The notes beneath the pieces were generated by a model. That model had not been told where the DNA came from. It ran no database searches and worked only from the letters and a program-made list of their open reading frames with translations. The translations under genes and the position numbers were made by a program. A DNA stretch of 24,817 bases, taken from Candidatus Schekmanbacteria bacterium. GTDB taxonomy: Bacteria; CSSED10-310; JACPHN01. Position 1 is the first letter of the stretch. Every line of letters starts with the position of its first letter. Positions 1,292 to 15,832 of this stretch are shown here, piece by piece. The stretch is from NCBI GenBank assembly GCA_016188575.1, contig JACPHN010000166.1:1-24817 (forward strand), written 5' to 3'.

Positions 1292-1334
1292 TCCATGGCG
1301 CACGTCAACTGACATGATCTTCAGGAGAATCGCC

Positions 1335-2894
1335 ATGATTTCCATGTACTCCAGAATGGATTCCGCAGATGCATACGTTGATCCTACCTTCGAGCCCCCG
1401 TACGACGACGCGCTTGACGAAGAACAGGACTTCTTTCGCGCTGACGAGAGCACAATCCTCGATCGCGATGAGTACGAGGATGAGTACGAGTCAGCCGAGG
1501 ACAGTACCTGGGCCGATACCTACGGGCTTGCGGGCGGCGATGTTTTCTCCGAGTCTTATGGCGCGGAGGATCGGGGATACGTGGACTCGTTCGAGGCCAG
1601 GATCGATGAAGCGATCGACGAAGCGATCGACTCCACCGATTGGGAGCAAGACCTGCTGGACGAGGGCGAGAAGTATGCCGCCGAAGAGCTGAACGAATGG
1701 CTCGGCGAGCCGTGGAGCGAGAGCTCGTCGGTCGATGATCCGGACGGGCTGACAATGGAAGACGTCTACCAAGAGGACGAGCAGTTTCAGCCGCTGACGC
1801 GGCTTCGGCTCGACACGAAGATCACCCCAGACCAGCTCATGAATGCCGAGATCAGCGGCAAGGACAAGGACAAGGGCGAGGCGTTGGAAAAGCTGCTCGT
1901 CGCCGAGCGCGGCGGCTACGGCGTCGCCATGCCATACGTAGTGCCAAAGAAAAAAACGGATGTGGAGCCGACCACGCCGCGGCCACCCGCAATCCTCGTA
2001 CATGGCATCGACGGTTCGCCCTCTAGCATCAACAAGCTCGCGACCGAGCTGTATGAATCAGGACACCAGCCCTACATCTACTTCTACGACGACCGCAACC
2101 GAAACCTGACCGACAGTGGCAGAGACCTCGCCCAAGCGGTGGAGGAAATCCGCGCGGCGCACGGGATGTCGACGGCCGACGGGCAGATGACGATCGTCGC
2201 ACATTCCATGGGAGGGCTCGTCGGGCTCAGCGCCATGCGCCAGATGTCGGAGTTTGGCTGGGGCCAGGAAGGCCGAACGGATCCCCGCCTCACGCTCGCG
2301 GCAGTCGATACGCCGTGGCGAGCCTACGGGCAGGGTAGCGAGCTCGTCAAGCAATTCACCGGGGACGACAGCAGCCTGCCCGACATGATCGCCGACAGCG
2401 AATTCCAGCGCGACGTGCATCAAGGGCCGCTGCCGGCGAACATGGAAGTGCGGCTGGTGGAAGCCAACAACGCACGACGATGGGAGTGGAGCCGAAAGGT
2501 TGTCGGCTTCGAGGAGCTATCTCACAGCGAGATCAACGAGGTATTGGGTGCCGCGCTCCTTTCTGAAGACAGCGCTACTTTTAATGAGGATGCCGTCAGC
2601 AGCATAAACATCAGAAACATGGTCGGAACGCTAAATCTATTACCTGAAGATCAGAGGATTGACATGATACGCGATCTCACAGAAGTGCATTTGGAGGCAG
2701 CCCCCATGAGACGAACGCTGAAGCTAGAATACTGGAAACAAGCTAAATATCAGGAAATCATGGCCAGGCACATAAACATTGTCGCTGGCACTCATGATGA
2801 CATCCTTGATACCGATTCAACAGCAGCGTATGTCCGAATGATTGCCCGCGGGAATCGCGGCCGGAACACCGGCAGCACCACCACCGCCCGTTAA
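1335..2894 (+). CDS. Alpha/beta-hydrolase lipase with acidic N-terminus
   Basis: This 519-residue protein begins at ATG 1335, chosen over ATG 1314 because AGGAG lies 7 bases upstream and because the sigma-54-like promoter would leave almost no leader for 1314. Residues 1 to about 150 are very acidic (runs of D and E) and probably disordered, with no signal peptide. The hydrolase domain starts near residue 215. The oxyanion motif ILVHGIDGS contains His223, and the nucleophile elbow VAHSMGGLVG contains Ser291. A later NIVAGTHDDILD segment looks like the acid-residue loop. Only about 25 residues follow and they contain no histidine, so the usual catalytic His is not evident in its normal place. 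Likely substrates are esters or phospholipids, by family. The protein could be a secreted or injected effector lipase without a Sec signal. The ankyrin gene follows after 10 bases, implying co-transcription. Confidence 0.75.
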   Translation: MISMYSRMDSADAYVDPTFEPPYDDALDEEQDFFRADESTILDRDEYEDEYESAEDSTWADTYGLAGGDVFSESYGAEDRGYVDSFEARIDEAIDEAIDSTDWEQDLLDEGEKYAAEELNEWLGEPWSESSSVDDPDGLTMEDVYQEDEQFQPLTRLRLDTKITPDQLMNAEISGKDKDKGEALEKLLVAERGGYGVAMPYVVPKKKTDVEPTTPRPPAILVHGIDGSPSSINKLATELYESGHQPYIYFYDDRNRNLTDSGRDLAQAVEEIRAAHGMSTADGQMTIVAHSMGGLVGLSAMRQMSEFGWGQEGRTDPRLTLAAVDTPWRAYGQGSELVKQFTGDDSSLPDMIADSEFQRDVHQGPLPANMEVRLVEANNARRWEWSRKVVGFEELSHSEINEVLGAALLSEDSATFNEDAVSSINIRNMVGTLNLLPEDQRIDMIRDLTEVHLEAAPMRRTLKLEYWKQAKYQEIMARHINIVAGTHDDILDTDSTAAYVRMIARGNRGRNTGSTTTAR

Positions 2895-2904
2895 GGAAAT
2901 AGCC

Positions 2905-3978
2905 ATGATACGCATCCGAGTTACCCTGGCCACCCTGGTAGTACTGCTACTCGCTGCCCCTGGAGACACACAGCCCGCTCGCGCGACGGACGGAGAAGGA
3001 CTCTACGAAGCCGTCGCCGAGCACGACCTGGTCACAGTTCAGCGGCTGCTCGAAAATGGCGGGGACGACATCGACAGCACTTTGCCGAGCGACTCCGCCG
3101 CATCGGTCTGCGCTCCGCTGAAGAAGGCGGTCGCCGACAGCTGGAACGAGGGGACGCGGCTCCTCCTCGCCCATGGTGCCGATCTCGACAAGAGGGTCGC
3201 AAAATGCAGCATGACCATGATGCACGAGGCAGTTTACGTCCACGATTTCGCGGTAATGAAGTTTCTGCTGGAGGCTGGTGCCGATCCAGACCTGGCCTCC
3301 AAGAATGGCGCCGAACCGTATTTGTGGGCGGCGGCCAGCAAGAAGAATGCAAAGACCATGGCCCTACTGCTCAACTTCGGCGCCGATCCCAATGCCGTCG
3401 ACAACGAGGGCAACACGGCGCTCCACTCGTTTGCAACGCATGACTTTCGCAGCGAATATGGAGACGGCCCCGGCACGGCAGCCTGGGACACCATCTCTGA
3501 AACAGTGAGTGCGTTTGCTCAGCCGCGACCGTCCGGAATGCGAACCGACTTCAGCGCGCGTAACAAGGCGGGGATGACGCCGCTAATGATCGCGGCGTCG
3601 AACACGTCGGTCGCCCTGGTTCAGCAGCTCGTGGATCACGGCGCCGCTCCGAATGATCGTGGCCCGGAGGGGCGGACGCCACTGCACTGGGCGGTGCAGG
3701 CGTACTATGAACACACGCGGCCCCGTCAGTACATCAGGGACTGGGGGCTGGTGGCCGGGCTATTCATGAAGGCCCTGAATTCGCGCATGTTCGTATCCAA
3801 CAAGGAGGGACGGCAGACGACCTATCGGCTGCTCGAGGCGCTGATTGCAGGCGGCGCCGATGTGTCGATCGCGGACGACGATGGGCGGACTCCCTCGCAG
3901 TTAGCGAGCCACAGGCGCTGCTACCGGATTGCGCACAAGGTCCGCAGCCTGGCGGCGCAAGCGAGGCGGCGAAAGTAG
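2905..3978 (+). CDS. Exported ankyrin-repeat protein
   Basis: This 357-residue protein starts at ATG 2905, behind AAGGAAA and ten bases after the lipase stop. Its signal peptide is the stretch MIRIRVTLATLVVLLLAAP followed by an Ala-rich cleavage region, so it should act in the periplasm or outside the cell. At least six ankyrin repeats are visible. Typical units are VQRLLENGG, GTRLLLAHGADLDK, MKFLLEAGADPDLASKNGAEP, MALLLNFGADPNAVDNEGNTALH, VQQLVDHGAAPNDRGPEGRTPLH and LEALIAGGADVSIADDDGRTP. A roughly 50-residue insertion separates the fourth and fifth. Ankyrin proteins bind other proteins. The tight coupling to a lipase suggests a partner or inhibitor (immunity-like) role in the periplasm, which is inference only. 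The C-terminus is basic (AQARRRK). Confidence 0.85.
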   Translation: MIRIRVTLATLVVLLLAAPGDTQPARATDGEGLYEAVAEHDLVTVQRLLENGGDDIDSTLPSDSAASVCAPLKKAVADSWNEGTRLLLAHGADLDKRVAKCSMTMMHEAVYVHDFAVMKFLLEAGADPDLASKNGAEPYLWAAASKKNAKTMALLLNFGADPNAVDNEGNTALHSFATHDFRSEYGDGPGTAAWDTISETVSAFAQPRPSGMRTDFSARNKAGMTPLMIAASNTSVALVQQLVDHGAAPNDRGPEGRTPLHWAVQAYYEHTRPRQYIRDWGLVAGLFMKALNSRMFVSNKEGRQTTYRLLEALIAGGADVSIADDDGRTPSQLASHRRCYRIAHKVRSLAAQARRRK

Positions 3979-4247: not shown

Positions 4248-7200
4248 TTATTGCAGCGCTTGCAGCGCCACGAGCGTGATGCGGAGCTCCTGCTGAATCG
4301 CCACCGTTGCTGCCTTGGTCTGGACATCGATCTTCGCGAGCTTCGCGACTCGCGCGGACAGCGTGACCAGCTTGGCGTCCGCGGCGACGAGCTGACCTCT
4401 TGCCGCGGTGAGCTCAGGTGCTTGCGGCAGCGCGTCAAACGCGCGGATGACCGCTGACAGATCCTTCTCGGCCTGAGCCATCTGTGTCCGGAGCGCCGGC
4501 GTCACCTTGACTCCGATGCGGCTCACCTGGTTGGCAAGCTCACCGACGTCCTGCACCAGGTGCTCGAGCGGGTCCACCACCGTGGGCAGGTTGCCGAACG
4601 GGCTTTTCACCGGTGCGTCGCCTTTCTCCGGCGCTTCGATCACGATGACCGGTTTCTTCAACTCATCGACCAATTCCTGCCAGCGGTCTGCCGCGCATTG
4701 CTGCAGCGTTTGCACCCCTGCTCGATCCTGCTCGCGGAAATCGATGACGCCGTCGCGGCGCGCCCTGACCGCGGCATCCGCCGCCGACTTCGCGCAGGAC
4801 AGGGTGTCCGGGTCCGCGAGCCACTGATACATGGCAACGATCCCGGCGCGGCCAAAGCACTGGTCCTCAAAGGTGTAACAGATCGCCGCGGCGATTGCCA
4901 CCGCCGCGGCCGGGTGCTCCACCATCAGCGCCACGACGTCGGCGGCGTTCTGCACGCCCACCGCCGCGAGCAGCGCGGCGCATTGTTCCGGCCGAGAGAT
5001 GCAGGCGGCCACGACCGCGGCCCCTGCCATGCCGGGATGGCCGAGCGGGTTGTCATATTCCTGCTCCTGCTCCTTCGACCCCGTCTCATAGGTGCAGTGC
5101 TGGTCGAGCCAACTGTCCGGCACGTCGTCGACGAGCTGAATCGAGGCCTGCAGCCAGCCGCCCTTCGTGCGGATTTGACCGTTCGTCAGAAACTGCAGGC
5201 GCCCGCGGGTCACGATGTCGCACAGCTCGCCGTAGAAGCTCCCGGTTCCCTTCTTGCAGGCATTGTCGCGCTTGAACGCGCCGGCCGCGATCCCGAAGAT
5301 CTCGAAGTCGCTGTCGAAGTCGAACGAGGAGCAATCCCCGTCCTGGCACGCGAGCTTGTCGGGAAAGAAGCTCGAGCCCGCCGTCACCGGCAAGAGCACT
5401 TCGGAGAACACATACTGGGTCAGCAAGTCCTCGAGGTACGGCAGCAGGTTATTGAACATGAGCCGCGCGAGCTCGTTGAGGTCGGGCGGCAGCCGCACGG
5501 CGACGTCGCCGGCGCCAATCGCGTAGCCGGAGACGACGGCGTCCGCCGCGTCCGTGGTGAGATCCACACGCGGGCGCGACCGCGGCTGGGTGGGTACGCT
5601 GCACCCATAGCCCTCTGGCTGGTTGGAGCTGGCGCACGAGCAAACGATGGTCGACAGATCCAGCCGCGCTCTGCCGCGGACGGCCAGCCCGATGGAGGCC
5701 AGCTTGACGACCGACCCCTCGATGCCTGCCTGCGCGAAGCGCTCCGCCAGCAGCGGCGAGAGGTCTTCGGCCTGCTCTCCGGTGACCCGCTGGTACACGT
5801 CCAGGCGAAGCCAGTTGAGGTCGAAGCAGAGCGAGTGGTCCTGTCCGGGCACGTCGAAGCGCACCTTGATCGCTAGCTCTTCAGGCGCGCGATCCACCTC
5901 GCACGGTGTCGACGGCGCCCCGATCAGCGCGCGCGGTGGCGCTTCCGCGCTGATCGCGTAGACCAGATTGCCGGTATCGAGATCGTCGATCCCCACGAGC
6001 TGCCACAAGTTTTCGTTGTCGGGATCCACGGCTATGGAACCGTGCGACAGGTAGCCTGCTTCCTGCATCGCCAGCAGCGCGTTGTTGACCACCTGCTGAC
6101 TGATGCTGACGGTGCCGAGCGAGGCGCGGACGGACAGATTCGAGGTGCCCGCGAAGGCTTCGGGTGCCGTCGACACCGGCGCCACGGCCACACTATCCTG
6201 TGCCAGCGCTCCGTAGTTTGGGCGGTGCCCGTCCCAGGCGATGCCAAGGTCGGCCGTGACCCTGACGTCACCACCGGAGAGGCCAATGTCCCCGATACCC
6301 GCGCTCGCCCACAGCGTGCTCGTGATCGGGCCGAGGATGTCCTCCGCTACCGGCTCGATCTCGCGCTCTTCGTAGAGCTCGCGGGCGCGATCGAGGCGCA
6401 CGATGCGGTCCGCGGCGAGAAGCTGAGCGGCTGGTCCCTTGACCATGATTTCCAACTGCTGATTGCCGATCATCGACTGTGCCACCTTGTCCATCACCAT
6501 TCGGGCGTTGAGGCTGAGCGCGTCGAAAACAGCGCCGGAGCGCAGGCGGGCCGACGGCACCTGGCACTTGCTCTTGATCGGGTTGCGCCAGTAACTGTCG
6601 CGGATCTTCGCCGCCACGTCGTCGTCAGCCACCGCCAGGAGCGCCTTGTACGGGCACGACGAACCCGTGCAAAAGACCGCGTCATAGCACTGGTTGTTCC
6701 CCTGGATGTCGTACAGGATATTCCTGGCCAGATCCGTCCTGATGTTGAACGTGATGTCCTCAATCGTGACGGCGCCGCCATCTCGGGTGACGCTCTGGTA
6801 GAGCAGCACGGCGGTGAGCTCCTGTAGCGTCCAGTTCTGAAACGCTTGCAGTCCTGTGCTCTCGAAGTCCGCCTTGGCGAGGTAACAGTCCGTTTCCGGG
6901 CACGAATAGGTCACGTCGCGCAGGCCGATCGCCGGCGTTGTGCCCTCGTGCACCGCCAGCTCGATGCTCCCCGAGAACCGAGGCTTCGCGCGGTAGTCGA
7001 TGGTGGTAAGGTCGACGGCGGGAGGCAGCTCAAACACGAGATTTTTTGCCGTCGCGTCCTCGATGCTGTCGCTGATCATCGGCTCGAGCACGAGCTCGTC
7101 GACCAGGGCTCCCGCAATCTTGCCAAGCTCGGCCGCCGGCTCGAAACCCGTAATCTTGCCCACCACGCGCCCGATGAGGCCAAAGGCGAATTCTCCAATT

Positions 7201-10200
7201 GCCGTGTCGATCTTGTGCTTCATGCCCTTGATGGCGCCGGTGAGCTGAAGCTGCCCGGGCGCCAGGGAGAAGCCGATGGCGTCGCCCTGGTCCGTAAAGG
7301 CCACGCGATCCTCGCCACCGGGTTGATTGCCGTTGTTCATCGTAAACCTGGCGGTGCCGCTGAGCTGATCGAGCGCCACCTGGATGTCGGCCAGGGTCTT
7401 GGTGTAGAGCAATGCATCGATCTTTGCCTTGTACCACACGTCGATCGGACCCACGAGGAAGCCGAGCGCCGCGGTGGCGTTGCTACCCTGGTACCACAAG
7501 GTCGTGGAGCCAAAGTCGGCGTCACCGCTACCCCTGGCGATGACGGCGTCGAACTCGAAGTCGTCGATCTTCTGGTCGAGCGAGTATTCGGCATCCGCTG
7601 CCTTCGCGTCGATCGTGTCATCGACCAGGGAGATGAGCTTGCCGACCTCGGCCGTGATGAGCTTGCGGCCCAGCTCGATCGCGTCTTTCCGTGCGGCGCT
7701 TGCGGACCCAAAGGTGGCCTGGGCGAAGCTGCATTCGGGCATGAGGCGATCGCCTTCCGGCTCCTTGCCGCTCAAGGCATTGACGGTCGCGTTGCTGATC
7801 TGGGTATACGCGGACCTCATCGCGTAGTCGTCACAGGCGACCGGGAATTGGCCATCCTCGCATTCAAGCTCGGCCCTGGCCGCCAGGAAGGCGGTCGCCG
7901 TCAGCCAGTCGTTCCGCATCGTAACCTTGGCCGCCACGCTGTCTACCATGGCGTTACTGAAAGCGTCCGCGAGCTTGGTGAAGCCCGTCGCGTCGCGGAG
8001 AGCGGTGGGGCGATTCGCGGCGAAGCGCCGGTCCACTCGCGACTGCAGGTCGTTGAAGCGGAACCAGTACAGGTGGCGGCCGGCGCCGGCCTGGCTTGGC
8101 GGCGCAATAACGGTGGGAAACAGGGAAATCGGATCCGGGATGATCTTGCAGTCGTCGCAATTGGCGATCCTGGCCACCCAGTAGGCGGTGCGCGCGAGCA
8201 AATCTTGCTCATTGCCCGTGGGCTCCTTGCCACCGGGGAGGGCACAGGCGAGCTGGCTCGGCTGCGCCAGATCGGGCATCGCCTGGAGCAGCGGGGACGC
8301 GGTGCGAGAGCTCAGCCAGGACGTCGTAGACTCCACCGGAGGCCAAAGGTAGAGCTCGACCACAGCGGGAGAATTGCGGGTCAGCACCCCGATGGCCGCC
8401 TTGTAGGAAATGGCGGTCGCAACGTCGTCCCAGCTCATCGCCGTGGCTAGCGGGTCGGCGACCTTTTGCAGGACCTCGAGCACGTGCGCGCGCGTCTCGA
8501 TTCCACCCGTGGCGAGGCGCCTGCCGAGCAATAGCGCCTGGGCGCGGGCCGGAAAGATGTCGGCAAAAATGCGTCCGTCAGCGGTTGTGTAGGCGGCGTA
8601 CAGGTCGACGAAACCGTCTACGGCCGCGGTGTCGCCGGGACGGTCCGCGATCCGCGCGGCGCTTCCCTGCCCGAGTTGCTCGAGTACGGTTGGCCGCGCC
8701 GGAGCGTTCTGGTGACCGCGATACGCGAGTTGCCCGCCGCCGTCGACGGAGTAGAGAGCACCCTGTCCGGTCAGAAACAGGGCGGAAACCTCCTCGAAGT
8801 CATCGGTCAGCGCGGGGCTGCCCCCGGTGGTCAGGTTGACCACGCCAATCCTGGCGTCGCCGGCACAGCGCATCTCGTGGCCGCCCAGGTAGTGCTCGCC
8901 GGCACCTTCGCAGCGAGCGTAAGCGGCGAGGATGCCGCCCGGCGTCGCCCTGAACATGACTCCCCGAACCTGCCCGAGCCCGGTTGTCGCGGCCGGAATC
9001 TTCTGCCCGTGCGGATGGGTGTAGAGACCGTCAGCGGTGATGGCGGCGCTGGCGGTGGAGCAGGCCGCGGTGGCGCTCATGGCACTGGTCGAAGTCGGAG
9101 GCGGCGAAGCCGTGGCGGGTTTCATCGGATTCGGGACGACGGTCTTTGTGGTCAGATGCGGCAGCCCACGGGCCGCCGCGTTGTAATAGAGGTTGCTGTC
9201 GTCGCTCGCGACGTCGAGAAACGCGGGGTAGCTATCGCCGAACGCCGTGCCGGCCGCGAAGCCGCTTTCCGTTCGACACGCCCGCGCCGTCAGCTCGGTC
9301 GTGCTTCCATAGACGCGCGCCTTGTCGCCGACGTTCTCCGCAAGCTCGGTGAGGGCCACGGTCAACTGATCCTTGGCGGCATCGTACTCGACAATTGGGA
9401 GGTCGACGGCCACCCGGCCGTTGTCGACGCGGCGCACCGCGACGTCGCCCGCGTCCAGGTTGCCCGTATCCATCGTGAACAGGTTGCCGTCGGCGCTGTG
9501 GTGCCAGCGCTTCATCAGGTTGCTCCAGGCGAAGAAGTCGAAGGCGACGTCGGTGATCGGCAAGTGATACTGCGTGGTCACGGTGGCGATACCGCCACTA
9601 TCGGGCGACGTCGAGAAGTTGGCCTTGGCCGGGATCGCCCGAGCCGGCGTCGCTCGCGCCGCCACGACCACGGCATGGGCGCCGTCGGTGCTGATGACCT
9701 TGACGAGCTTCCACTTGCAGATGGGCTGGGAGGAATCATCCAGCAGCGTCTCCGCGTTCCAGCTTGCCGCGAGGTTGGTGGTGATGAGCAGGATCTTGCA
9801 GTCCTTGGTGATTGCGGCGACGGACAGCGTGCCCTCGCGGCTGACAGCCGAGTCCCACTGGAGAATGTCCGAGCTCCCGGGAATCAGGCCGGCTCTCGGG
9901 GCGGCGATGACCGTGAACGAACGTTCGACGGGGGCAGGTGGCGGGATGTTCGGATGGACGGCGCGGGCGCTGACGGTCAGGGTGTAGGCGCCCGGCTGCA
10001 AGGGGCGATAGACGATCAGCGGTTGCCCTGCTTCGCGGTGAACTGTGGCTGGCCCGGTGACCTCCCAGCTCCAGCCGGTGACCAGGGTGCTGAGCTTGCC
10101 ACCGTCGATGATCACGTTCTCACCAGCGAAGAAGTTGCCGGAAACGTCGCGCTGCCCGAAGAAGGCAACTTCGAGCTTCGCGTTGAGGTTGGATAGCGGT

Positions 10201-10367
10201 GCCGTGGCCGGTTGCGCGGCGGTTGGCGACGGGCCAGCGAACGCTGAGGCGTGGGCCGTCAGGCTGGCGATGAGCGCGAGGAGGCGGAGCAGGCCGGGAT
10301 GGCCGTGCGCCCGGTGGCAGGTGGCGCCACGAGAGGAGAAGCGTTTCTTGTCGCTTGTGCGAGTCAT
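4248..10367 (-). CDS. Giant secreted protein with BPI/LBP-like region
   Basis: This 2039-residue protein starts at ATG 10367, with GGAG 7 bases upstream, and ends in TAA. Residues 1-45 contain a positively charged start and a hydrophobic core (LLRLLALIASLTAHASAFA), a Sec signal peptide. Residues about 60-155 look like a PKD or Ig-like domain (GWSWEVTGPA ... LQPGAYTLTVSARA). Residues about 160-700 are beta-rich with a Ser/Thr/Pro linker near 415-435. From about 880 onward come long amphipathic segments and many cysteines in pairs (CPETDC, CYDAVFCTGSSC, CSCASS, CQDGDC), fitting disulfides outside the cytoplasm. Near 1420, ISQQVVNNALLAMQEAGYL closely resembles the motif opening the C-terminal barrel of BPI/LBP proteins; near 1627, LNELARLMFNNLLPYLEDLL resembles its closing helix. 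The last 90 residues are coiled-coil-like. The role may be extracellular lipid binding (inference). It is the second gene of an operon, 15 bases after the small exported protein. Confidence 0.8.
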   Translation of the reverse strand: MTRTSDKKRFSSRGATCHRAHGHPGLLRLLALIASLTAHASAFAGPSPTAAQPATAPLSNLNAKLEVAFFGQRDVSGNFFAGENVIIDGGKLSTLVTGWSWEVTGPATVHREAGQPLIVYRPLQPGAYTLTVSARAVHPNIPPPAPVERSFTVIAAPRAGLIPGSSDILQWDSAVSREGTLSVAAITKDCKILLITTNLAASWNAETLLDDSSQPICKWKLVKVISTDGAHAVVVAARATPARAIPAKANFSTSPDSGGIATVTTQYHLPITDVAFDFFAWSNLMKRWHHSADGNLFTMDTGNLDAGDVAVRRVDNGRVAVDLPIVEYDAAKDQLTVALTELAENVGDKARVYGSTTELTARACRTESGFAAGTAFGDSYPAFLDVASDDSNLYYNAAARGLPHLTTKTVVPNPMKPATASPPPTSTSAMSATAACSTASAAITADGLYTHPHGQKIPAATTGLGQVRGVMFRATPGGILAAYARCEGAGEHYLGGHEMRCAGDARIGVVNLTTGGSPALTDDFEEVSALFLTGQGALYSVDGGGQLAYRGHQNAPARPTVLEQLGQGSAARIADRPGDTAAVDGFVDLYAAYTTADGRIFADIFPARAQALLLGRRLATGGIETRAHVLEVLQKVADPLATAMSWDDVATAISYKAAIGVLTRNSPAVVELYLWPPVESTTSWLSSRTASPLLQAMPDLAQPSQLACALPGGKEPTGNEQDLLARTAYWVARIANCDDCKIIPDPISLFPTVIAPPSQAGAGRHLYWFRFNDLQSRVDRRFAANRPTALRDATGFTKLADAFSNAMVDSVAAKVTMRNDWLTATAFLAARAELECEDGQFPVACDDYAMRSAYTQISNATVNALSGKEPEGDRLMPECSFAQATFGSASAARKDAIELGRKLITAEVGKLISLVDDTIDAKAADAEYSLDQKIDDFEFDAVIARGSGDADFGSTTLWYQGSNATAALGFLVGPIDVWYKAKIDALLYTKTLADIQVALDQLSGTARFTMNNGNQPGGEDRVAFTDQGDAIGFSLAPGQLQLTGAIKGMKHKIDTAIGEFAFGLIGRVVGKITGFEPAAELGKIAGALVDELVLEPMISDSIEDATAKNLVFELPPAVDLTTIDYRAKPRFSGSIELAVHEGTTPAIGLRDVTYSCPETDCYLAKADFESTGLQAFQNWTLQELTAVLLYQSVTRDGGAVTIEDITFNIRTDLARNILYDIQGNNQCYDAVFCTGSSCPYKALLAVADDDVAAKIRDSYWRNPIKSKCQVPSARLRSGAVFDALSLNARMVMDKVAQSMIGNQQLEIMVKGPAAQLLAADRIVRLDRARELYEEREIEPVAEDILGPITSTLWASAGIGDIGLSGGDVRVTADLGIAWDGHRPNYGALAQDSVAVAPVSTAPEAFAGTSNLSVRASLGTVSISQQVVNNALLAMQEAGYLSHGSIAVDPDNENLWQLVGIDDLDTGNLVYAISAEAPPRALIGAPSTPCEVDRAPEELAIKVRFDVPGQDHSLCFDLNWLRLDVYQRVTGEQAEDLSPLLAERFAQAGIEGSVVKLASIGLAVRGRARLDLSTIVCSCASSNQPEGYGCSVPTQPRSRPRVDLTTDAADAVVSGYAIGAGDVAVRLPPDLNELARLMFNNLLPYLEDLLTQYVFSEVLLPVTAGSSFFPDKLACQDGDCSSFDFDSDFEIFGIAAGAFKRDNACKKGTGSFYGELCDIVTRGRLQFLTNGQIRTKGGWLQASIQLVDDVPDSWLDQHCTYETGSKEQEQEYDNPLGHPGMAGAAVVAACISRPEQCAALLAAVGVQNAADVVALMVEHPAAAVAIAAAICYTFEDQCFGRAGIVAMYQWLADPDTLSCAKSAADAAVRARRDGVIDFREQDRAGVQTLQQCAADRWQELVDELKKPVIVIEAPEKGDAPVKSPFGNLPTVVDPLEHLVQDVGELANQVSRIGVKVTPALRTQMAQAEKDLSAVIRAFDALPQAPELTAARGQLVAADAKLVTLSARVAKLAKIDVQTKAATVAIQQELRITLVALQALQ

Positions 10368-10382
10368 GACCTTTCTCCGTAA

Positions 10383-10802
10383 TCAGTGCGTGGAGGGGCG
10401 TCGTGAGCGTTCGGAATACTGGGCGACCAGGGCTGGCGTGATGCGTACGAGCTGACCGTCTCCGAGAGCGATGCGCGCCTTGCCGATCATCGTCTTGCTG
10501 ACCAGGGCGAGCTTGTCTCCCGGCAAGCGCAGGCGCAGCAGGCCGTACTGGACGATGGAGGAGTCCGGCGCGGGCATGGCATCGCCCGGGGAGACAAGGA
10601 CATCAGCGGCGGGTGCTGGCGGGCGCACGCCGAGATCGGCGATGCGGGCTCGCTGATAGCGGGATGGCGCGGCGGGCGAAGCAGGGGTGGGGCTGGTGAG
10701 CGCGATGACCAGGGCTGCGGCGAGGGAGAGTGCAGCGGCGAGAGTGCGCCCGGGGCGGCAGCGGGCAGGGCGGCCTTGGGAAGAATCGAGGGAGCCGGTC
10801 AT
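10383..10802 (-). CDS. Small exported protein preceding the giant protein
   Basis: This 139-residue protein starts at ATG 10802. AAGGA lies 7 bases upstream, and the sigma-54 promoter at 10864-10879 would fall inside the longer open frame that reaches 11000, so the longer start is rejected. Residues about 19-45 form one hydrophobic stretch (LAAALSLAAALVIALTSP) preceded by arginines: either a signal peptide or an N-terminal membrane anchor. An Ala/Pro-rich linker follows, then a compact region with YGLLRLRLPGDKLALVSK and LGDGQLVRITPALVAQY. No family is recognised. It ends 15 bases before the start of the 2039-residue protein and is surely on the same transcript, so it may be an accessory factor or membrane partner for that protein. 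Confidence 0.7.
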   Translation of the reverse strand: MTGSLDSSQGRPARCRPGRTLAAALSLAAALVIALTSPTPASPAAPSRYQRARIADLGVRPPAPAADVLVSPGDAMPAPDSSIVQYGLLRLRLPGDKLALVSKTMIGKARIALGDGQLVRITPALVAQYSERSRRPSTH

Positions 10803-10863
10803 GGGAGAATCCTTTCTTGGCGCTGCGGCGAGGTATGGGTTCGCGGCTATTGCCGATGAACGA

Positions 10864-10879
10864 AGCAGGAAGCGTGCCA
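10864..10879 (-). promoter_or_regulatory. Sigma-54 promoter of the giant-protein operon
   Basis: Read on the minus strand the site is TGGCACGCTTCCTGCT, preceded by C. It matches the consensus YTGGCACG-N4-TTGCW at every position except one T-to-C change and the weak purine position. GG and GC are exactly 10 bases apart. The predicted start near 10853 gives a leader of about 50 bases ending in a ribosome-binding site for the 139-residue gene. Confidence 0.72.
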
Positions 10880-11085
10880 GCGGGTCGGCCGGGGGGAGAT
10901 GGCGCGGAAAGGACTCGGAGAGCGGGGTAGTGGGCGGCGACATGGGGTCGTGACGGCAGGTGGCGCCATCATGAGGCTCAACGTTCACTGCGGCCCCCAC
11001 ATCACCTCACCTCGCTTGCGGGGAGAGGCAGGGAGAGGGGCGCCTGCCACACCTGTAAAGGATCATCCCTTCGTCAGCCGGTCCG
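10880..11085. other. Intergenic region upstream of the sigma-54 promoter
   Basis: No credible gene is seen. The stretch contains a half-copy of the 'gcttgcggggagag' intergenic repeat at about 11013-11043. It lies where activator-binding sites for the sigma-54 promoter would be expected, but I see no clear inverted repeat to name. Confidence 0.4.
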
Positions 11086-11203
11086 AAACCCCGCCCTTTA
11101 GAGCGGAATCGCCGCGGAACCCCGGCCTGAAGGCCGGGGTTTCAGCGGTGGTTAGGGCGGGGTCCAAACCCCGCCCTAACATGTCGCCGGCCTAAAGGCC
11201 GGC
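11086..11203. repeat. Cluster of three perfect tetraloop hairpins
   Basis: Three hairpins stand in a row, each with a four-base loop. The first has 10-bp arms (11118-11127 and 11132-11141, loop TGAA). The second has 13-bp arms (11151-11163 and 11168-11180, loop CCAA). The third has 7-bp arms (11186-11192 and 11197-11203, loop TAAA). The right arm of the second hairpin contains AAACCCCGCCCT, which also occurs at 11086-11097, so an alternative pairing is possible. This is a REP-like palindromic cluster, not a simple terminator, as no T-run follows. Confidence 0.8.
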
Positions 11204-11362
11204 ATCCGTATTGGTCACTCGGTATTCGGCCACGCCCCAAGCCGGCGTCCAGCTCCCGATTCCGCCTCCATGCGGCGCAGCAGCCCGAGGTGGTCTTGGC
11301 GCGCTGCCCCGGTTGCGCCGCCCCCCCCGGCTCGCCATAATAAGGTCGCATCGAGTTTTCTT
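11204..11362. other. Gap upstream of tRNA-Sec
   Basis: No gene is seen. On the plus strand a possible sigma-70 promoter lies at 11313-11341: TTGCGC, a 17-base spacer, then CATAAT (five of six bases of TATAAT). It would start transcription about 15 bases before the tRNA. The -35 box is weak. Confidence 0.4.
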
Positions 11363-11456
11363 GGGGGCGGGGCCGATCTGGTGATCGGTGCGGGCTTCAA
11401 ACCCGTTACGGGGCACTAACCCTGCTCTGGGTAGGTTCGATTCCTACACGCTCCCG
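11363..11456 (+). tRNA. selC: Selenocysteine tRNA, anticodon TCA
   Basis: The 94-base sequence folds as a bacterial tRNA-Sec. The acceptor is 8 positions long (11363-11370 with 11448-11455; one G-T pair, and position 8 is a G-A mismatch). The D stem has 6 pairs (CCGATC/GATCGG) and a four-base loop TGGT, a hallmark of this tRNA. The anticodon stem GCGGG/CCCGT holds loop CTTCAAA, with anticodon TCA at 11397-11399, reading UGA. A long variable arm pairs CGGGGCA (11409-11415) with TGCTCTG (11423-11429). The T arm is GTAGG-TTCGATT-CCTAC. The discriminator is G (11456). CCA is not encoded. The cell should therefore decode UGA as selenocysteine, though no selA, selB, selD or selenoprotein gene is seen in this window. 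Confidence 0.9.
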
Positions 11457-11472
11457 TCGGACGGCCGGGGCG

Positions 11473-12711
11473 CTAACCAGGAAACTCCGAATACCTCCGC
11501 ACGTGATCGCGCGTGCCCTGGTACAGAAAGGACTCGTGGACGTGCCAGCGACCGGCATCTAAGGCCGCGGCGTCGTTGCGATCCGCGACCTCGACGAGCG
11601 CCATGATCTCCTCGTATTCTTCGATGGAGATGCGCTCCCGCGCCGCAAGCTGGGCGGCGGGATCGAGCGCCGCCGCATGGCCCTCGACGCCCGGTACGGT
11701 GCGCGCGAAGCCCCACGCGGCGCCACAGCCGCTGCCGTAGGAGAACAGGCTCACCAGACCCGGACCAGTGCGGTTCCTGTGACGCAGATAATCGATCAGT
11801 GCCAGGAACAAGGATCCGGTGTAGATGTTGCCCACTTCGGCGTTGAGACTGAGCCACGGCGCCACCCGCTGCCCGTGACTTGCCTCCACCTCTTGCGCCC
11901 GCTGATCTCCCGGGCTCACCCCGGCGCCGAGCTCCGCTTCCCAGTGCCGCTGGTGCGCCTTCTTCGCCATCTTGACGAAGGGCACGTGATAGAAACAGGC
12001 GGAGAGCTTTGCAATCGCGTACTCCTCGGCGTCCGCGGCCTTGGCGAGCGCGTCGGCGCGACACGCCGCGAGCGCCTCGAGGTAGCACGCGATCGAGTAA
12101 TGGCCGTCCGCAAACGCGAACTTCGAGTAGAGAGGCCGCCAAAAATCCATGACCTGCCGGGTGTAGTCGCCGGTAACGAGCGGATCGAAGGTAATCAGGC
12201 GCGGATTCTCCGACACCACCATGGCCACCGCCCCCGCGCCCTGCGTCGGCTCACCGAGCTCGCCAACGCCGTAACGCGCGATGTCCGAGGCGATGATCAA
12301 CGCCTTGTATCCCCGCGCGCGCCCCGACAGGATCCAGTCACTAGCGGCGGTCAGACCTGCAAACGCTCCGTAGCACGCATGCTTGGTCTCGAACGTCCGG
12401 CAGCACCGTCGCAGCTTCAGCGCCTCGTGCACGTAGACCGCAACCGGCTTGCTGTGATCGATGCCGGTCTCCGTGCCGACCACCAACGTGCCGATCTGCT
12501 GCGGGTCGACGTCGAAGCGCTTCAGCGCCAGCGCCGCCGCATTGGCCGCCAGTGTCACGCTGTCCTCGCACGGCGTCGCGATCGCCATGCGCAACTGCCC
12601 GAGGCCACGCGTATACTTGGCCGGGTCCACCCCCCGCGCGCGCGCCAGGTCCGCCATGTCCAGGTAGCGCTGCGGTCCAAAAAAGGCGATTGCATCGATG
12701 CCGACGTCCAT
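11473..12711 (-). CDS. mvaS: Hydroxymethylglutaryl-CoA synthase
   Basis: This 412-residue protein starts at ATG 12711 (MDVGIDAIAFFGPQRYLD), with AAGGAG about 10 bases upstream; an earlier in-frame start at 12744 has no better signal. It should condense acetyl-CoA with acetoacetyl-CoA to HMG-CoA in the cytoplasm. Visible hallmarks are the general-base Glu region VGTETGIDHSKP (about residues 78-89), the nucleophilic Cys in ETKHACYGAF (about 112), the His in FYHVPFVKMAKKAH (about 235-248) and the glycine-rich LFSYGSGCGAAWGF (about 338-350). Length and start fit bacterial MvaS. PksG-type synthases of polyketide beta-branching are close relatives, but no polyketide genes are in view, so the mevalonate pathway is preferred. 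No other mevalonate gene is adjacent. It is convergent with the tRNA-Sec gene, with 16 bases between them. Confidence 0.88.
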   Translation of the reverse strand: MDVGIDAIAFFGPQRYLDMADLARARGVDPAKYTRGLGQLRMAIATPCEDSVTLAANAAALALKRFDVDPQQIGTLVVGTETGIDHSKPVAVYVHEALKLRRCCRTFETKHACYGAFAGLTAASDWILSGRARGYKALIIASDIARYGVGELGEPTQGAGAVAMVVSENPRLITFDPLVTGDYTRQVMDFWRPLYSKFAFADGHYSIACYLEALAACRADALAKAADAEEYAIAKLSACFYHVPFVKMAKKAHQRHWEAELGAGVSPGDQRAQEVEASHGQRVAPWLSLNAEVGNIYTGSLFLALIDYLRHRNRTGPGLVSLFSYGSGCGAAWGFARTVPGVEGHAAALDPAAQLAARERISIEEYEEIMALVEVADRNDAAALDAGRWHVHESFLYQGTRDHVRRYSEFPG

Positions 12712-12864
12712 CTGCGCTGGTCTCCTTGCTGAGGCTTTTTCCACCCGCCCCCGTGCCGGCGGGAGATCTCACCCAATCCGCAACCTATCGAGCGCCGGAC
12801 CGGTATGCAAGGGCGAGCCAGCTCATGCCGCTTGCCCCCGCCGCGCACTGCCGTTACAGCGTGA

Positions 12865-12900
12865 ATCGCTCCACCCACCCTCGCGAGCGAATGGAGCGAT
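12865..12900. repeat. Stem-loop between HMG-CoA synthase and the MopE-like gene
   Basis: The 9-base arms ATCGCTCCA (12865-12873) and TGGAGCGAT (12892-12900) are perfectly complementary, with an 18-base loop containing TCGCGA. It lies 65 bases past the stop of the large minus-strand gene and upstream of the HMG-CoA synthase. It may separate the two transcripts, but no T-run is present. Confidence 0.45.
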
Positions 12901-12964
12901 CGGTGTCCTGCCGGCGCGGCCCACCTGGGCCTGACGCCGGCTGGCTGCGCGGCCCCTGTGCCCG

Positions 12965-15832
12965 TCAGTAGCAGCCCCACATGCTGGTGCACATGATTGC
13001 CACCGATGCGCCGATGGTCTCGCCATAGGTGGCGTCATCATAAGCGGCCGAAATCACCACGGTCTGGAACCCGCCGAGGTAAACCACATTGACCAGCCCG
13101 TTCGCATCGACCGTCACTGCGGAGGAGTTGCTGGAGCTCCACCGCACGCTGCTCGGGTCAAGGATCGTGCTGAAGTTGTGATAGATGACGGTGCCGAGGT
13201 CGAAGCTTTCGCTGTACGTCACCAGCTCGACGCTCGTCGGTTCCGAATCCTTGGTGACGACCATGTACGGTTCTTCCATCTTGATCAGTGCCAGGTCGAG
13301 TTGCGGCATGCCTTCGTCCATGGTCGTTGCGACGTAGTGCCCGGTCAGCATGAGCGCGGCGTCGCTTTGCGCATCGCCAAGCGCGTCCTCAATCAGGTAA
13401 TAGACATAGTAGGTGTCCGCGACTTCGCTGCTGTCGGCGGAGCAATAGCTCGCCGGGTCATCCACGTCGACCGGCACGAAGTGGTCGGGAAGAAGGCACG
13501 CGAGCTCCTTTACCCCATACAGCAGAGCAGTATCGAGGTTGCGCCGAATGATGGCCTCGCCGGGAAGGTTTCCGTTAAGATCGACAACCGTCACCGTCTC
13601 GTCGTCGAGGTCGACCTCGACCTTGGTGCTCAGGAGCACGTCGTGGGCGGCGTCGAAACCCAGCGATGCGGAAAACTCCAGCATCTCGCTGTCTGAGGGC
13701 TGATGGATGACGAGCTCGGGATTGGCGTCGACCGCCGCGCGCAGCGTTTCGTCGCCCTCGATCGTCATCGTCAGGTTGCGGATGTTCATGAAGACGCGGC
13801 CTTCCTCGTCGACCTCGAAATACGGGGCGACGCCGGCGGAGATAGAGACCCCATCGCCGAGATCGAAGTTGAATAGCCCCATTGTCGTGGTCGCATACAT
13901 GAGCTGATTCAGAAAGCTCTCACCGACGGACAGGCTTCCCAGAGCGTTGGCCGGCCCTTCGGTCTGGTTGCCGTTCACACTATCGCCTTGCAGGAAGCGC
14001 GTTTCGTAGCGATGCGACGAATCCGTTGCACCGACCTTCGCGAGGGTGGAGGAGAAGTAGACGTTGAGCGGATCCGAACCCGAGCTCTTGTCGGAAAACT
14101 CCGTCTTGCCGAGCACCATGCCGAGCGTCCAGGTCTCATCGAGGTGAAGCTGGTATTGCAGGTTGATTTCGGGATCGGTGCCGCTGACCGGCAGCCCCGC
14201 GTGGAAGGTCTCGTTGAGCACGTACTCCAGCGCGTTTCGCAGCGCGGGCGCGCGGTCGAAGTCGAGCCCGCGGTCGCTGTCGTCGGCCTTGGACCACACC
14301 TTGTCATACGTGCTGCGAAGCACCTCATAGATCTCTTCGTAGAGGTTGATGCCGTAGAGCTCGTCGATGGTCCACACGAGGTCCTCAAAGAGCTCGCTAC
14401 CAAAGTATTCTTGCCTGAGGCTCGTCACCAGCCCATTTACGTAAAGGTAGTAGCTGATGTCGCCAAGCATGGCCTCCGCCTGATATTCCGTGGTATCAGA
14501 AACCCAGTCGCAAACGCCTGTTCCTGTAAGCTCAATATAATCGTCAATAGGACTGTAATCTCCCGAGGTCGTAACGTTATAACCGTTGAACATCAGATTG
14601 AGCTTGTTCACCACGAAGGCGAGCTCGCCCTGCTCCGCTGCCCAATCCTTCGGGGCCTGATAGCGGACATCCGGGTAGGAGTAGGAGCGATCGAACCATT
14701 CGGCGGTGAAATCGTCGAGCGTGAAGTTTGCATACCAGGCCGGCCAACCGCCCTCGGACGTGGTCCCGCCAACTTTCGGCACCTTGGGGCTGAAGTTTAC
14801 CAGGAAGCTCGGGTAGTCGAGATCGAGGGTGAAGCATTCCGCGGTGACCTTGATCGAGCTGAAGAAGATTTTCGCGGAAATGGAGCCGTCGAGGAGGCCC
14901 TCGCCGGTGTTGCTGCCGCTGACGTCCGTATCCGAGGATTGAATCTGCACGTTCAGGCCGCTGAAGGTGACGTAATCGGCGAGGTCCGTGGCGCCGTCGA
15001 TGGCGTCCTGAATGGCACCTTCGAGCTGTTCCTCGAGTGTGTCGTAGAAGCGCTCGAGAAGATTGACCGACAGGGGCGAAGTCAGCGTGGAGTTGTACGA
15101 CTTGTAGGCGGCGTTGAAGAGGTAAAGGCGGTGCACGAAGGTCGTGCCGTCGTTCGCCGTAACCTCATAACTGAGGCGCTGATGATCATAAGCGGCGTAG
15201 ATAGTCGCGGCGGTGTCGATGATGATGTAGCCGCTGGTGCTGGGGCAGGAGATTTGCGGGCTCGAGGAGCAGAGCTGCAGGGCCACGTCGCGGGAGCCGC
15301 CGGCGTAGGCGGTCACGTGCACAGTGGTATCGGCGAGCACGTCCTGGGTATCGACCCAGACCGCGACGGTGATGGCGGTATCGGAGGTTACGGAGGTGAC
15401 GTAGCCGTCATCGATCGCGCGGCCGCCGATGGAGATTGTGCTGAGCGAGATGGGGCGCTCGTCCACGGTTCCGTCGCAGTCGTTGTCGATGCCGTCGCCG
15501 GTGACCTCGGCGGCCGCGGGGTTGATCGCGGCGTTCGCGTCATTGCAGTCGCCGCCGATTTTCGCGTAATTGGCGGGTGTTTCTGCGTTGCGGTCGATGC
15601 AAATCCAGGAGGCTCCCTCGGCATAGAAATGATCGGCGTCACCGTCCCAGTATACCTTGGTCTGCGTGGCGGTGCAGTCGCGAGGGGTGCCCTTGGTGGC
15701 GGGGGTCCGCCGCTGGTCGGCGGCAAGCGACCTCGCCGAGGCGGCGGAGAGACAGAGGACAGTGGCGAGCAGGGCGGCGGTCAAGCGCACCGCAGCTCTG
15801 GGAAAGAGACGTGAGGATCTTGCTGGCTGCAT
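12965..15832 (-). CDS. Large secreted MopE-like, BPI/LBP-like protein
   Basis: This 955-residue protein starts at ATG 15832, with GGAG 7 bases upstream. The open frame runs on to 16441, but a sigma-54 promoter at 15879-15894 and a clear signal peptide (residues 1-40, LTAALLATVLCLSAASA) fix this start. Residues about 50-121 form a MopE-type metal-binding region: DGDADHFYAEG, then GGDCNDANAAINPAAAE, then DGIDNDCDGTVDE, a calcium- or copper-type acidic motif. Residues about 260-620 are beta-rich with amphipathic helices (YDTLEEQLEGAIQDAID). Residues about 632-660 (SVGESFLNQLMYATTTMGLF) match the pattern that opens the C-terminal BPI/LBP barrel, and LACLLPDHFVPVD near 775 resembles its end. The last 75 residues look like a BIG2-type Ig domain (VRWSSSNSSAVTVDANGLV). 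It probably works outside the cell and may bind lipid (inference). It stands alone as a transcript. Confidence 0.82.
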   Translation of the reverse strand: MQPARSSRLFPRAAVRLTAALLATVLCLSAASARSLAADQRRTPATKGTPRDCTATQTKVYWDGDADHFYAEGASWICIDRNAETPANYAKIGGDCNDANAAINPAAAEVTGDGIDNDCDGTVDERPISLSTISIGGRAIDDGYVTSVTSDTAITVAVWVDTQDVLADTTVHVTAYAGGSRDVALQLCSSSPQISCPSTSGYIIIDTAATIYAAYDHQRLSYEVTANDGTTFVHRLYLFNAAYKSYNSTLTSPLSVNLLERFYDTLEEQLEGAIQDAIDGATDLADYVTFSGLNVQIQSSDTDVSGSNTGEGLLDGSISAKIFFSSIKVTAECFTLDLDYPSFLVNFSPKVPKVGGTTSEGGWPAWYANFTLDDFTAEWFDRSYSYPDVRYQAPKDWAAEQGELAFVVNKLNLMFNGYNVTTSGDYSPIDDYIELTGTGVCDWVSDTTEYQAEAMLGDISYYLYVNGLVTSLRQEYFGSELFEDLVWTIDELYGINLYEEIYEVLRSTYDKVWSKADDSDRGLDFDRAPALRNALEYVLNETFHAGLPVSGTDPEINLQYQLHLDETWTLGMVLGKTEFSDKSSGSDPLNVYFSSTLAKVGATDSSHRYETRFLQGDSVNGNQTEGPANALGSLSVGESFLNQLMYATTTMGLFNFDLGDGVSISAGVAPYFEVDEEGRVFMNIRNLTMTIEGDETLRAAVDANPELVIHQPSDSEMLEFSASLGFDAAHDVLLSTKVEVDLDDETVTVVDLNGNLPGEAIIRRNLDTALLYGVKELACLLPDHFVPVDVDDPASYCSADSSEVADTYYVYYLIEDALGDAQSDAALMLTGHYVATTMDEGMPQLDLALIKMEEPYMVVTKDSEPTSVELVTYSESFDLGTVIYHNFSTILDPSSVRWSSSNSSAVTVDANGLVNVVYLGGFQTVVISAAYDDATYGETIGASVAIMCTSMWGCY

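What the first reader, a model, noticed from the sequence alone, without database searches (positions are those of the whole stretch)
4248..15832. Two giant secreted proteins with BPI/LBP (TULIP)-like motifs
The 2039- and 955-residue proteins both carry a segment like ISQQVVNNALLAMQEAGYL, or SVGESFLNQLMYATTTMGLF, followed after about 120-200 residues by an amphipathic helix. From family knowledge, animal BPI and LBP proteins show this order (IS..vfN.a......GyL, then a closing helix) in the C-terminal lipid-binding barrel. If right, these are very large bacterial lipid-binding or lipid-transfer proteins, perhaps acting on outer-membrane lipids or prey envelopes. The likeness is by eye.
Basis: inference. 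Interest (0 to 1): 0.8.

Follow-up and report, generated by a model that had tools for sequence, protein, structure and literature searches.

The report
Bacterial relatives of animal BPI/LBP proteins
Two very large secreted proteins of a little-known bacterium carry a faint but statistically real signature of the animal lipid-binding proteins BPI and LBP, and they led to a broad, apparently undescribed family of large bacterial proteins that match human BPI and LBP along their whole length, which bears directly on where this family of lipid carriers came from.

Summary
The two genes are real: 2039 aa (4248-10367, minus) and 955 aa (12965-15832, minus), each with a signal-peptide-like N-terminus. 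The quoted motifs are present. Direct tests first failed: no Pfam or PDB hit, no close relative found, and two single-sequence AlphaFold runs failed (pLDDT 32-33).

Searching other bacteria with Pfam's BPI C-domain model then found a family of large bacterial proteins (about 500-1600 aa) in 21 of 386 genomes from 15 family-level groups, and in all 7 genomes of one phylum. A profile of 30 bacterial members alone picks human BPI (E=1.8e-22) and LBP (6e-22) out of the whole PDB, over both barrel domains.

Against that family the window proteins carry the signature helix (N-x9-G spacing kept). The 955-aa protein matches with E about 2e-6 to 7e-6. The 2039-aa protein matches with E=0.005 (bacterial), 0.01 (human BPI/LBP only) or 0.0008 (both), and its closing helix lies where expected (E=0.006). 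Both are divergent: the full-length profile does not reach them in their own genome.

Verdict: BPI/LBP homology of a C-terminal TULIP domain is likely for both proteins. The fold, lipid binding and any attack on prey are unproven.

The parts
4248..10367 (-). P0001, 2039-aa secreted protein
   Evidence: ORF with GGAGA upstream of the start and hydrophobic signal-like N-terminus (LLRLLALIASLTAHASAFA); no Pfam, NCBIfam or PDB family
6033..6128 (-). P0001 residues 1414-1445, TULIP-C signature (N1428-x9-G1438)
   Evidence: PSSM tests: E=0.005 (18 diverse bacterial), 0.01 (human BPI+LBP only), 0.0008 (both), best site in the protein each time; profile HMM 6.8 bits against at most 4.5 in 2000 shuffles
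5763..6104 (-). P0001 residues 1422-1535, stretch aligned to the bacterial BPI-like protein L093
   Evidence: Smith-Waterman 76, p=1.5e-4 before correction for best of 47 relatives; includes SAEAPPRAL against LRPNYPPILL
5391..5486 (-). P0001 residues 1628-1659, putative closing helix of the TULIP-C barrel (NELARLMFNNLLPYLEDLL)
   Evidence: family closing-helix PSSM p=3e-5, E=0.006 within +80..+260 of the signature; hydrophobic moment 98th percentile
12965..15832 (-). P0002, 955-aa secreted protein (Met204 of the ORF)
   Evidence: GGAG upstream, signal-like N-terminus (VRLTAALLATVLCLSAASA)
15458..15550 (-). MopE-type metal-binding motif (PF11617) in P0002
   Evidence: E=4e-12
14990..15085 (-). 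P0002 residues 453-484, candidate first helix of the N-terminal TULIP domain
   Evidence: suggestive only: best match of the family's N-start helix in residues 335-837, E=0.07; hydrophobic moment 98th percentile for 460-484
13454..14242 (-). P0002 residues 734-996, stretch aligned to the bacterial BPI-like protein L092
   Evidence: Smith-Waterman 88, p=1.7e-4 before correction for best of several relatives
13856..13951 (-). P0002 residues 831-862, TULIP-C signature (N845-x9-G855)
   Evidence: PSSM of 47 bacterial members p=6e-9, E=7e-6; 18 diverse members E=2e-6; HMM 11.8 bits against at most 5.8 in 2000 shuffles
13073..13153 (-). Big_2-like Ig domain piece in P0002
   Evidence: PF02368 E=1.2e-4, 22.4 bits, just under cut-off 22.8
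10383..10802 (-). small secreted protein directly upstream of P0001 (Met at 10802; ends 15 nt before the P0001 start)
   Evidence: AAAGGA upstream, hydrophobic N-terminus, no family
11473..12711 (-). HMG-CoA synthase-like gene between P0002 and P0001, same strand
   Evidence: PF01154/PF08540; TIGR01835 331.6 bits, below its cut-off 360

Best explanation
P0001 and P0002 are divergent members of a broad bacterial family of large, exported, multi-domain proteins whose core is a BPI/LBP-type tubular lipid-binding (TULIP) unit. Shown: the signature helix with N-x9-G spacing in both, the closing-helix motif in P0001, and full-length homology of the wider bacterial family to BPI/LBP. Inferred: each protein folds one or two elongated barrels that hold acyl lipids. 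It is exported by a signal peptide and held at or near the cell surface by Ig-like, MopE and other accessory parts. There it takes up, presents or hands on lipids (outer-membrane lipids, LPS, or lipids from neighbours or food) much as LBP, PLTP or CETP do. Killing by BPI-type cationic LPS binding is unlikely because the proteins are strongly acidic.
For: Bacterial-only profile A3 against the PDB: BPI 1bp1 E=1.8e-22 (profile 9-446 on BPI 1-429), LBP 4m4d 6e-22, next BPIFA1 near 0.3. PF02886 exceeds its cut-off in L052 and L053. Signature in P0002 p=6e-9 and in P0001 p=2.6e-6; P0001 scores 13.9 bits with 18 diverse bacterial members, where human BPI itself scores 10.6. HMM domain scores exceed all 2000 shuffles of each protein. 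Smith-Waterman against L092 and L093. A same-phylum genome, G002, holds a clear member (L124, E=7e-8). Relatives share the exported, Ig-rich, acidic, multi-domain build, and some lie in clusters.
Against: No Pfam TULIP model reaches either protein, whole at E<=1 or in sub-segments at E<=10. The A3 profile finds nothing in the window's own genome at E<=0.5. hhalign gives only E 0.012 (P0002) and 0.15 (P0001), each confined to the signature helix. P0001 and P0002 show no similarity to each other. The N-terminal TULIP half is not established in P0001 and only suggestive in P0002. AlphaFold models are worthless, with pLDDT 32-33. The motif window was chosen after seeing the site, and the best pairwise scores were picked from 47 relatives.
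Confidence: 0.72

Rival explanations
1. P0002 is a true BPI-like member but P0001 is not: its motif is a chance match of an ordinary amphipathic helix in a large beta-rich surface protein.
For: P0001 is weaker than P0002 in every test that uses the bacterial family (E=0.005, hhalign 0.15). Its first half (1-880) resembles nothing known.
Against: The same site is the best in the protein with two independent references (animal and bacterial). It scores above human BPI with the bacterial PSSM. The closing-helix motif recurs at the right distance, and the L093 alignment continues through the PP strand.
Confidence: 0.2
2. Both proteins are unrelated large adhesin-like surface proteins and the resemblance is convergence of an exposed helix.
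For: Similarity is concentrated in about 30 residues; no Pfam or PDB TULIP hit and no usable model. MopE and Big_2 in P0002 are typical of surface proteins.
Against: p=6e-9 for P0002 against a family built without it, and preserved N-x9-G spacing in both. Family members themselves carry Ig-like surface domains, so an adhesin-like build is expected.
Confidence: 0.1
3. They belong to another bacterial TULIP branch already described (DUF4403, YceB/DUF1439, P47/OrfX, DUF2140, DUF2993) rather than to the BPI/LBP branch.
For: All share the TULIP fold and weak sequence signals; DUF4403 was described as a full-length pseudodimer (PMC6791001).
Against: None of those Pfam models rings in P0001, P0002 or ten scanned relatives, whereas PF02886 rings in several relatives.
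Confidence: 0.08

Closest known systems
Animal BPI / LBP (Pfam PF01273 + PF02886; PDB 1bp1, 1ewf, 4m4d)
   Same: signature helix with N-x9-G; bacterial relatives align over both barrels, E about 1e-22
   Different: the window proteins fail the Pfam models, are far larger, multi-domain and acidic; BPI is about 456 aa and cationic (charge of BPI from general knowledge and PMC11048543)
DUF4403 (PF14356), bacterial BPI-like pseudodimer predicted by Levine 2019 (PMC6791001)
   Same: bacterial, two barrels predicted in one chain
   Different: that link was an HHsearch probability of 63% to BPI-N; the family found here matches BPI/LBP directly by HMMER at about 1e-22, and no DUF4403 hit was found
YceB/DUF1439, DUF2140, DUF2993, P47/OrfX2 bacterial TULIPs (PMC5507252, PMC6791001)
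   Same: same general fold class if the prediction holds
   Different: mostly small single-barrel proteins; no sequence match to the window proteins
MopE-motif surface proteins (PF11617)
   Same: P0002 carries one such motif
   Different: the motif is an accessory piece; the rest of P0002 does not match those proteins

Membership tests
BPI/LBP/CETP family (PF02886 C-domain) | score above the Pfam gathering cut-off | tested here: not met
   no hit for P0001 or P0002, sub-segments up to E=10; relatives L052 and L053 do meet it
BPI/LBP/CETP family (PF02886 C-domain) | signature helix IS....N.......GxL with N-x9-G at the start of the C-terminal barrel | tested here: met
   P0002 p=6e-9, P0001 p=2.6e-6 by PSSM
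BPI/LBP/CETP family (PF02886 C-domain) | closing helix of the C-terminal barrel at conserved distance | tested here: inconclusive
   met for P0001 (E=0.006), not for P0002
BPI/LBP/CETP family | N-terminal TULIP domain joined to the C-terminal one (pseudodimer) | tested here: inconclusive
   suggestive helix in P0002 at 453-484 (E=0.07), nothing clear in P0001
TULIP superfamily | long helix wrapped by a strongly curved sheet, hydrophobic tunnel | tested here: inconclusive
   AlphaFold single-sequence models failed, pLDDT 32.0 and 32.7
TULIP superfamily | binds or transfers lipid | not testable with these tools
   needs purified protein
Bacterial BPI-like family defined here (A3) | significant full-length match to the family profile | tested here: not met
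   own genome silent at E<=0.5; P0002 gets 11.4 bits with the 32-member profile, above all 1000 of its shuffles (max 6.3) but with only 0.006 as E-value; P0001 0.6 bits
DUF4403 / DUF1439 / DUF2140 / DUF2993 / P47 | Pfam model match | tested here: not met
   no hit for the window proteins, none for ten relatives

The most novel reading that the evidence does not exclude
Bacteria of many lineages encode an old, diverse family of large exported proteins that are full-length, two-barrel homologues of animal BPI/LBP, expanded to as many as eight matches in some genomes. The animal LPS-binding and lipid-transfer proteins descend from, or share an ancestor with, this bacterial family, and P0001 and P0002 are its giant outliers.
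Probability: 0.6. Interest if true: 0.85.

Novelty: new variant of a known kind. Interest (0 to 1): 0.72.

Why it matters
[quoted passage not shown] Bacterial proteins that match BPI and LBP along both barrels at E about 1e-22 give that question a much firmer handle. They also raise the odd possibility that proteins used by animals to bind bacterial LPS have close relatives made by bacteria themselves, exported and often attached to the cell surface.

Tried and rejected
Pfam, NCBIfam and PDB sequence searches with the window proteins: no TULIP hit. Genome-contig scans for both proteins, viral-contig scans and plasmid tblastn: none. The genome search with the proteins themselves: only MopE cross-hits and noise. 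Pairwise Smith-Waterman of the window proteins with human BPI/LBP C-domains: not significant at the signature; a stray score at P0001 1-500 (61, above 300 shuffles) lies elsewhere and was not repeated by any profile. AlphaFold without an alignment: useless, so no fold search was run on those models. A viral-contig scan for family members gave none.

Full report
What was checked. The two open reading frames exist as described: P0001 at 4248-10367 (-), 2039 aa, and P0002 at 12965-15832 (-), 955 aa from Met204 of a longer frame. Both starts have purine-rich ribosome sites and hydrophobic signal-like N-termini. The quoted segments lie at P0001 1422-1440 and P0002 838-857 (ORF numbering). Everything between and around them on the minus strand looks like an ordinary bacterial neighbourhood: an HMG-CoA synthase-like gene and a small secreted protein between them, and a SWIM-domain protein, a SNF2 helicase and a LysC-LysA fusion upstream. 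The window is a complete contig of a 9.2-Mb genome with no close relatives in the collection.

Direct evidence was silent at first. Neither protein matches any TULIP model of Pfam or NCBIfam, even in sub-segments at E up to 10. P0002 only shows a MopE motif (E=4e-12) and a Big_2 fragment. There is no PDB match. No relative was found in GTDB contigs, plasmids or viral contigs, nor in several hundred genomes searched with the proteins themselves.

The motif itself is not chance. Scored against the human BPI and LBP segments (LSDYFFNTAGLVYQEAGVL, ISDYAFNIASRVYHQAGYL), the P0001 19-mer gets 33, while the best of 72,361 decoy 19-mers gets 22.5. P0002 is not special by that animal-only yardstick.

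A bridging bacterial family. A search of 386 diverse genomes with PF02886 (BPI C-terminal domain) found bacterial proteins over Pfam's cut-off (L052 8e-10, L053 3e-9) and several just below it. The best of them are large open frames, many with visible export signals. A profile of five of them matches human BPI-C and LBP-C (27 and 18 bits). The same profile finds 2-8 matches in every one of the seven genomes of the phylum of G381, with E down to 1e-190 (the two top hits were in the profile, but other genomes reach 1e-108). A 30-member bacterial alignment (A3) finds members in 21 of 386 genomes at E<1e-3, in 15 family-level groups, among them G002 in the window's own phylum (L124, E=7e-8). Searched against all PDB chains, A3 returns BPI (E=1.8e-22, profile 9-446 on BPI 1-429) and LBP (6e-22, 8-474 on 4-465), then BPIFA1 weakly, and nothing else. 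So this bacterial family is homologous to BPI/LBP along both barrel domains. Its invariant residues include the N and G of the signature (10 apart) and a P of the PP in the following strand. The human pair keeps the same N-G spacing.

Placing the window proteins. Exact p-values from position-specific matrices of the signature (32 positions, window proteins left out) give P0002 p=6e-9 (E=7e-6 over the protein; 2e-6 with 18 diverse members). For P0001, E=0.005 with diverse bacteria, 0.01 with human BPI/LBP alone and 0.0008 with both; in each case it is the best site in the protein. With all 47 bacterial members, dominated by one phylum, P0001 reaches only E=0.1. For scale, human BPI scores 10.6 bits with the diverse bacterial matrix and P0001 scores 13.9. 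The closing-helix motif lies at P0001 1628-1659 (E=0.006 in the expected interval). Profile HMM domain scores of 11.8 (P0002) and 6.8 (P0001) exceed all 2000 shuffles of each (maximum 5.8 and 4.5); that profile includes BPI and LBP. Smith-Waterman extends the match to P0001 1422-1535 with L093 (p=1.5e-4) and P0002 734-996 with L092 (p=1.7e-4), about 0.007-0.008 after allowing for the best of 47. Against this, A3 does not ring in the own genome, hhalign stays at 0.012 and 0.15, P0001 and P0002 are not detectably related to each other, and their N-terminal barrels are not established.

Mechanism. Family members are exported. Some have lipobox-like N-termini or end in a Cys-TM-basic tail of the MYXO-CTERM kind. 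Several carry Ig-like segments before the core (read by eye), and nearly all are acidic (median pI 4.05). That fits surface or periplasmic lipid binding, presentation or transfer, and does not fit killing through a cationic face. This is inference from the fold family; no substrate is known. P0001 and P0002 lie within 12 kb of each other, and other genomes also hold several such genes close together (three on one 10-kb stretch of G506:C31).

Assessment. I rate BPI/LBP homology at about 0.85 for P0002 and 0.75 for P0001, and a lipid-handling role at about 0.55. Papers I could search describe bacterial TULIPs (YceB, DUF4403, DUF2140, DUF2993, P47/OrfX; PMC5507252, PMC6791001) but not this one; subscription papers and preprints are outside the library, so prior description cannot be excluded.

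Noticed in passing
L076-L105 (phylum of G381): Every one of the seven genomes held for one bacterial phylum has two to eight matches to a large BPI/LBP-like family (most frames about 600-1526 aa), a lineage-wide expansion.
   Followed up: partly
L118 region, G506:C31 26247-35968; L113, G293:C31 57965-62602: BPI-like genes occur in close clusters: three within 10 kb in G506, and two core matches inside a 1620-aa frame in G293.
   Followed up: no
L054, L058, L060, L112, L114, L117, L120 (C-termini): Many bacterial BPI-like proteins end in a Cys-containing motif, a transmembrane stretch and a basic tail (MYXO-CTERM-like), and some start with a lipobox, suggesting surface anchoring.
   Followed up: partly
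window 10383-10802: A small secreted protein of unknown family ends 15 nt before P0001 and is probably co-transcribed with it.
   Followed up: no
window 11473-12711: HMG-CoA synthase-like gene scoring below the prokaryotic equivalog cut-off (331.6 against 360 bits), placed between the two giant genes.
   Followed up: no
window 21375-24020: Fused aspartokinase-diaminopimelate decarboxylase (LysC-LysA) in one 881-aa frame.
   Followed up: no
window 1314-3978: A lipase-like alpha/beta-hydrolase gene is followed directly by a secreted ankyrin-repeat protein, reminiscent of an effector-immunity or catalase-ankyrin type pair.
   Followed up: no
P0001 residues 1948-2037 (window 4254-4526): The C-terminal tail is helix-rich with a weak match to PqiB (E=0.01, far under cut-off), a protein of intermembrane lipid transport; probably only a coiled-coil likeness.
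   Followed up: no
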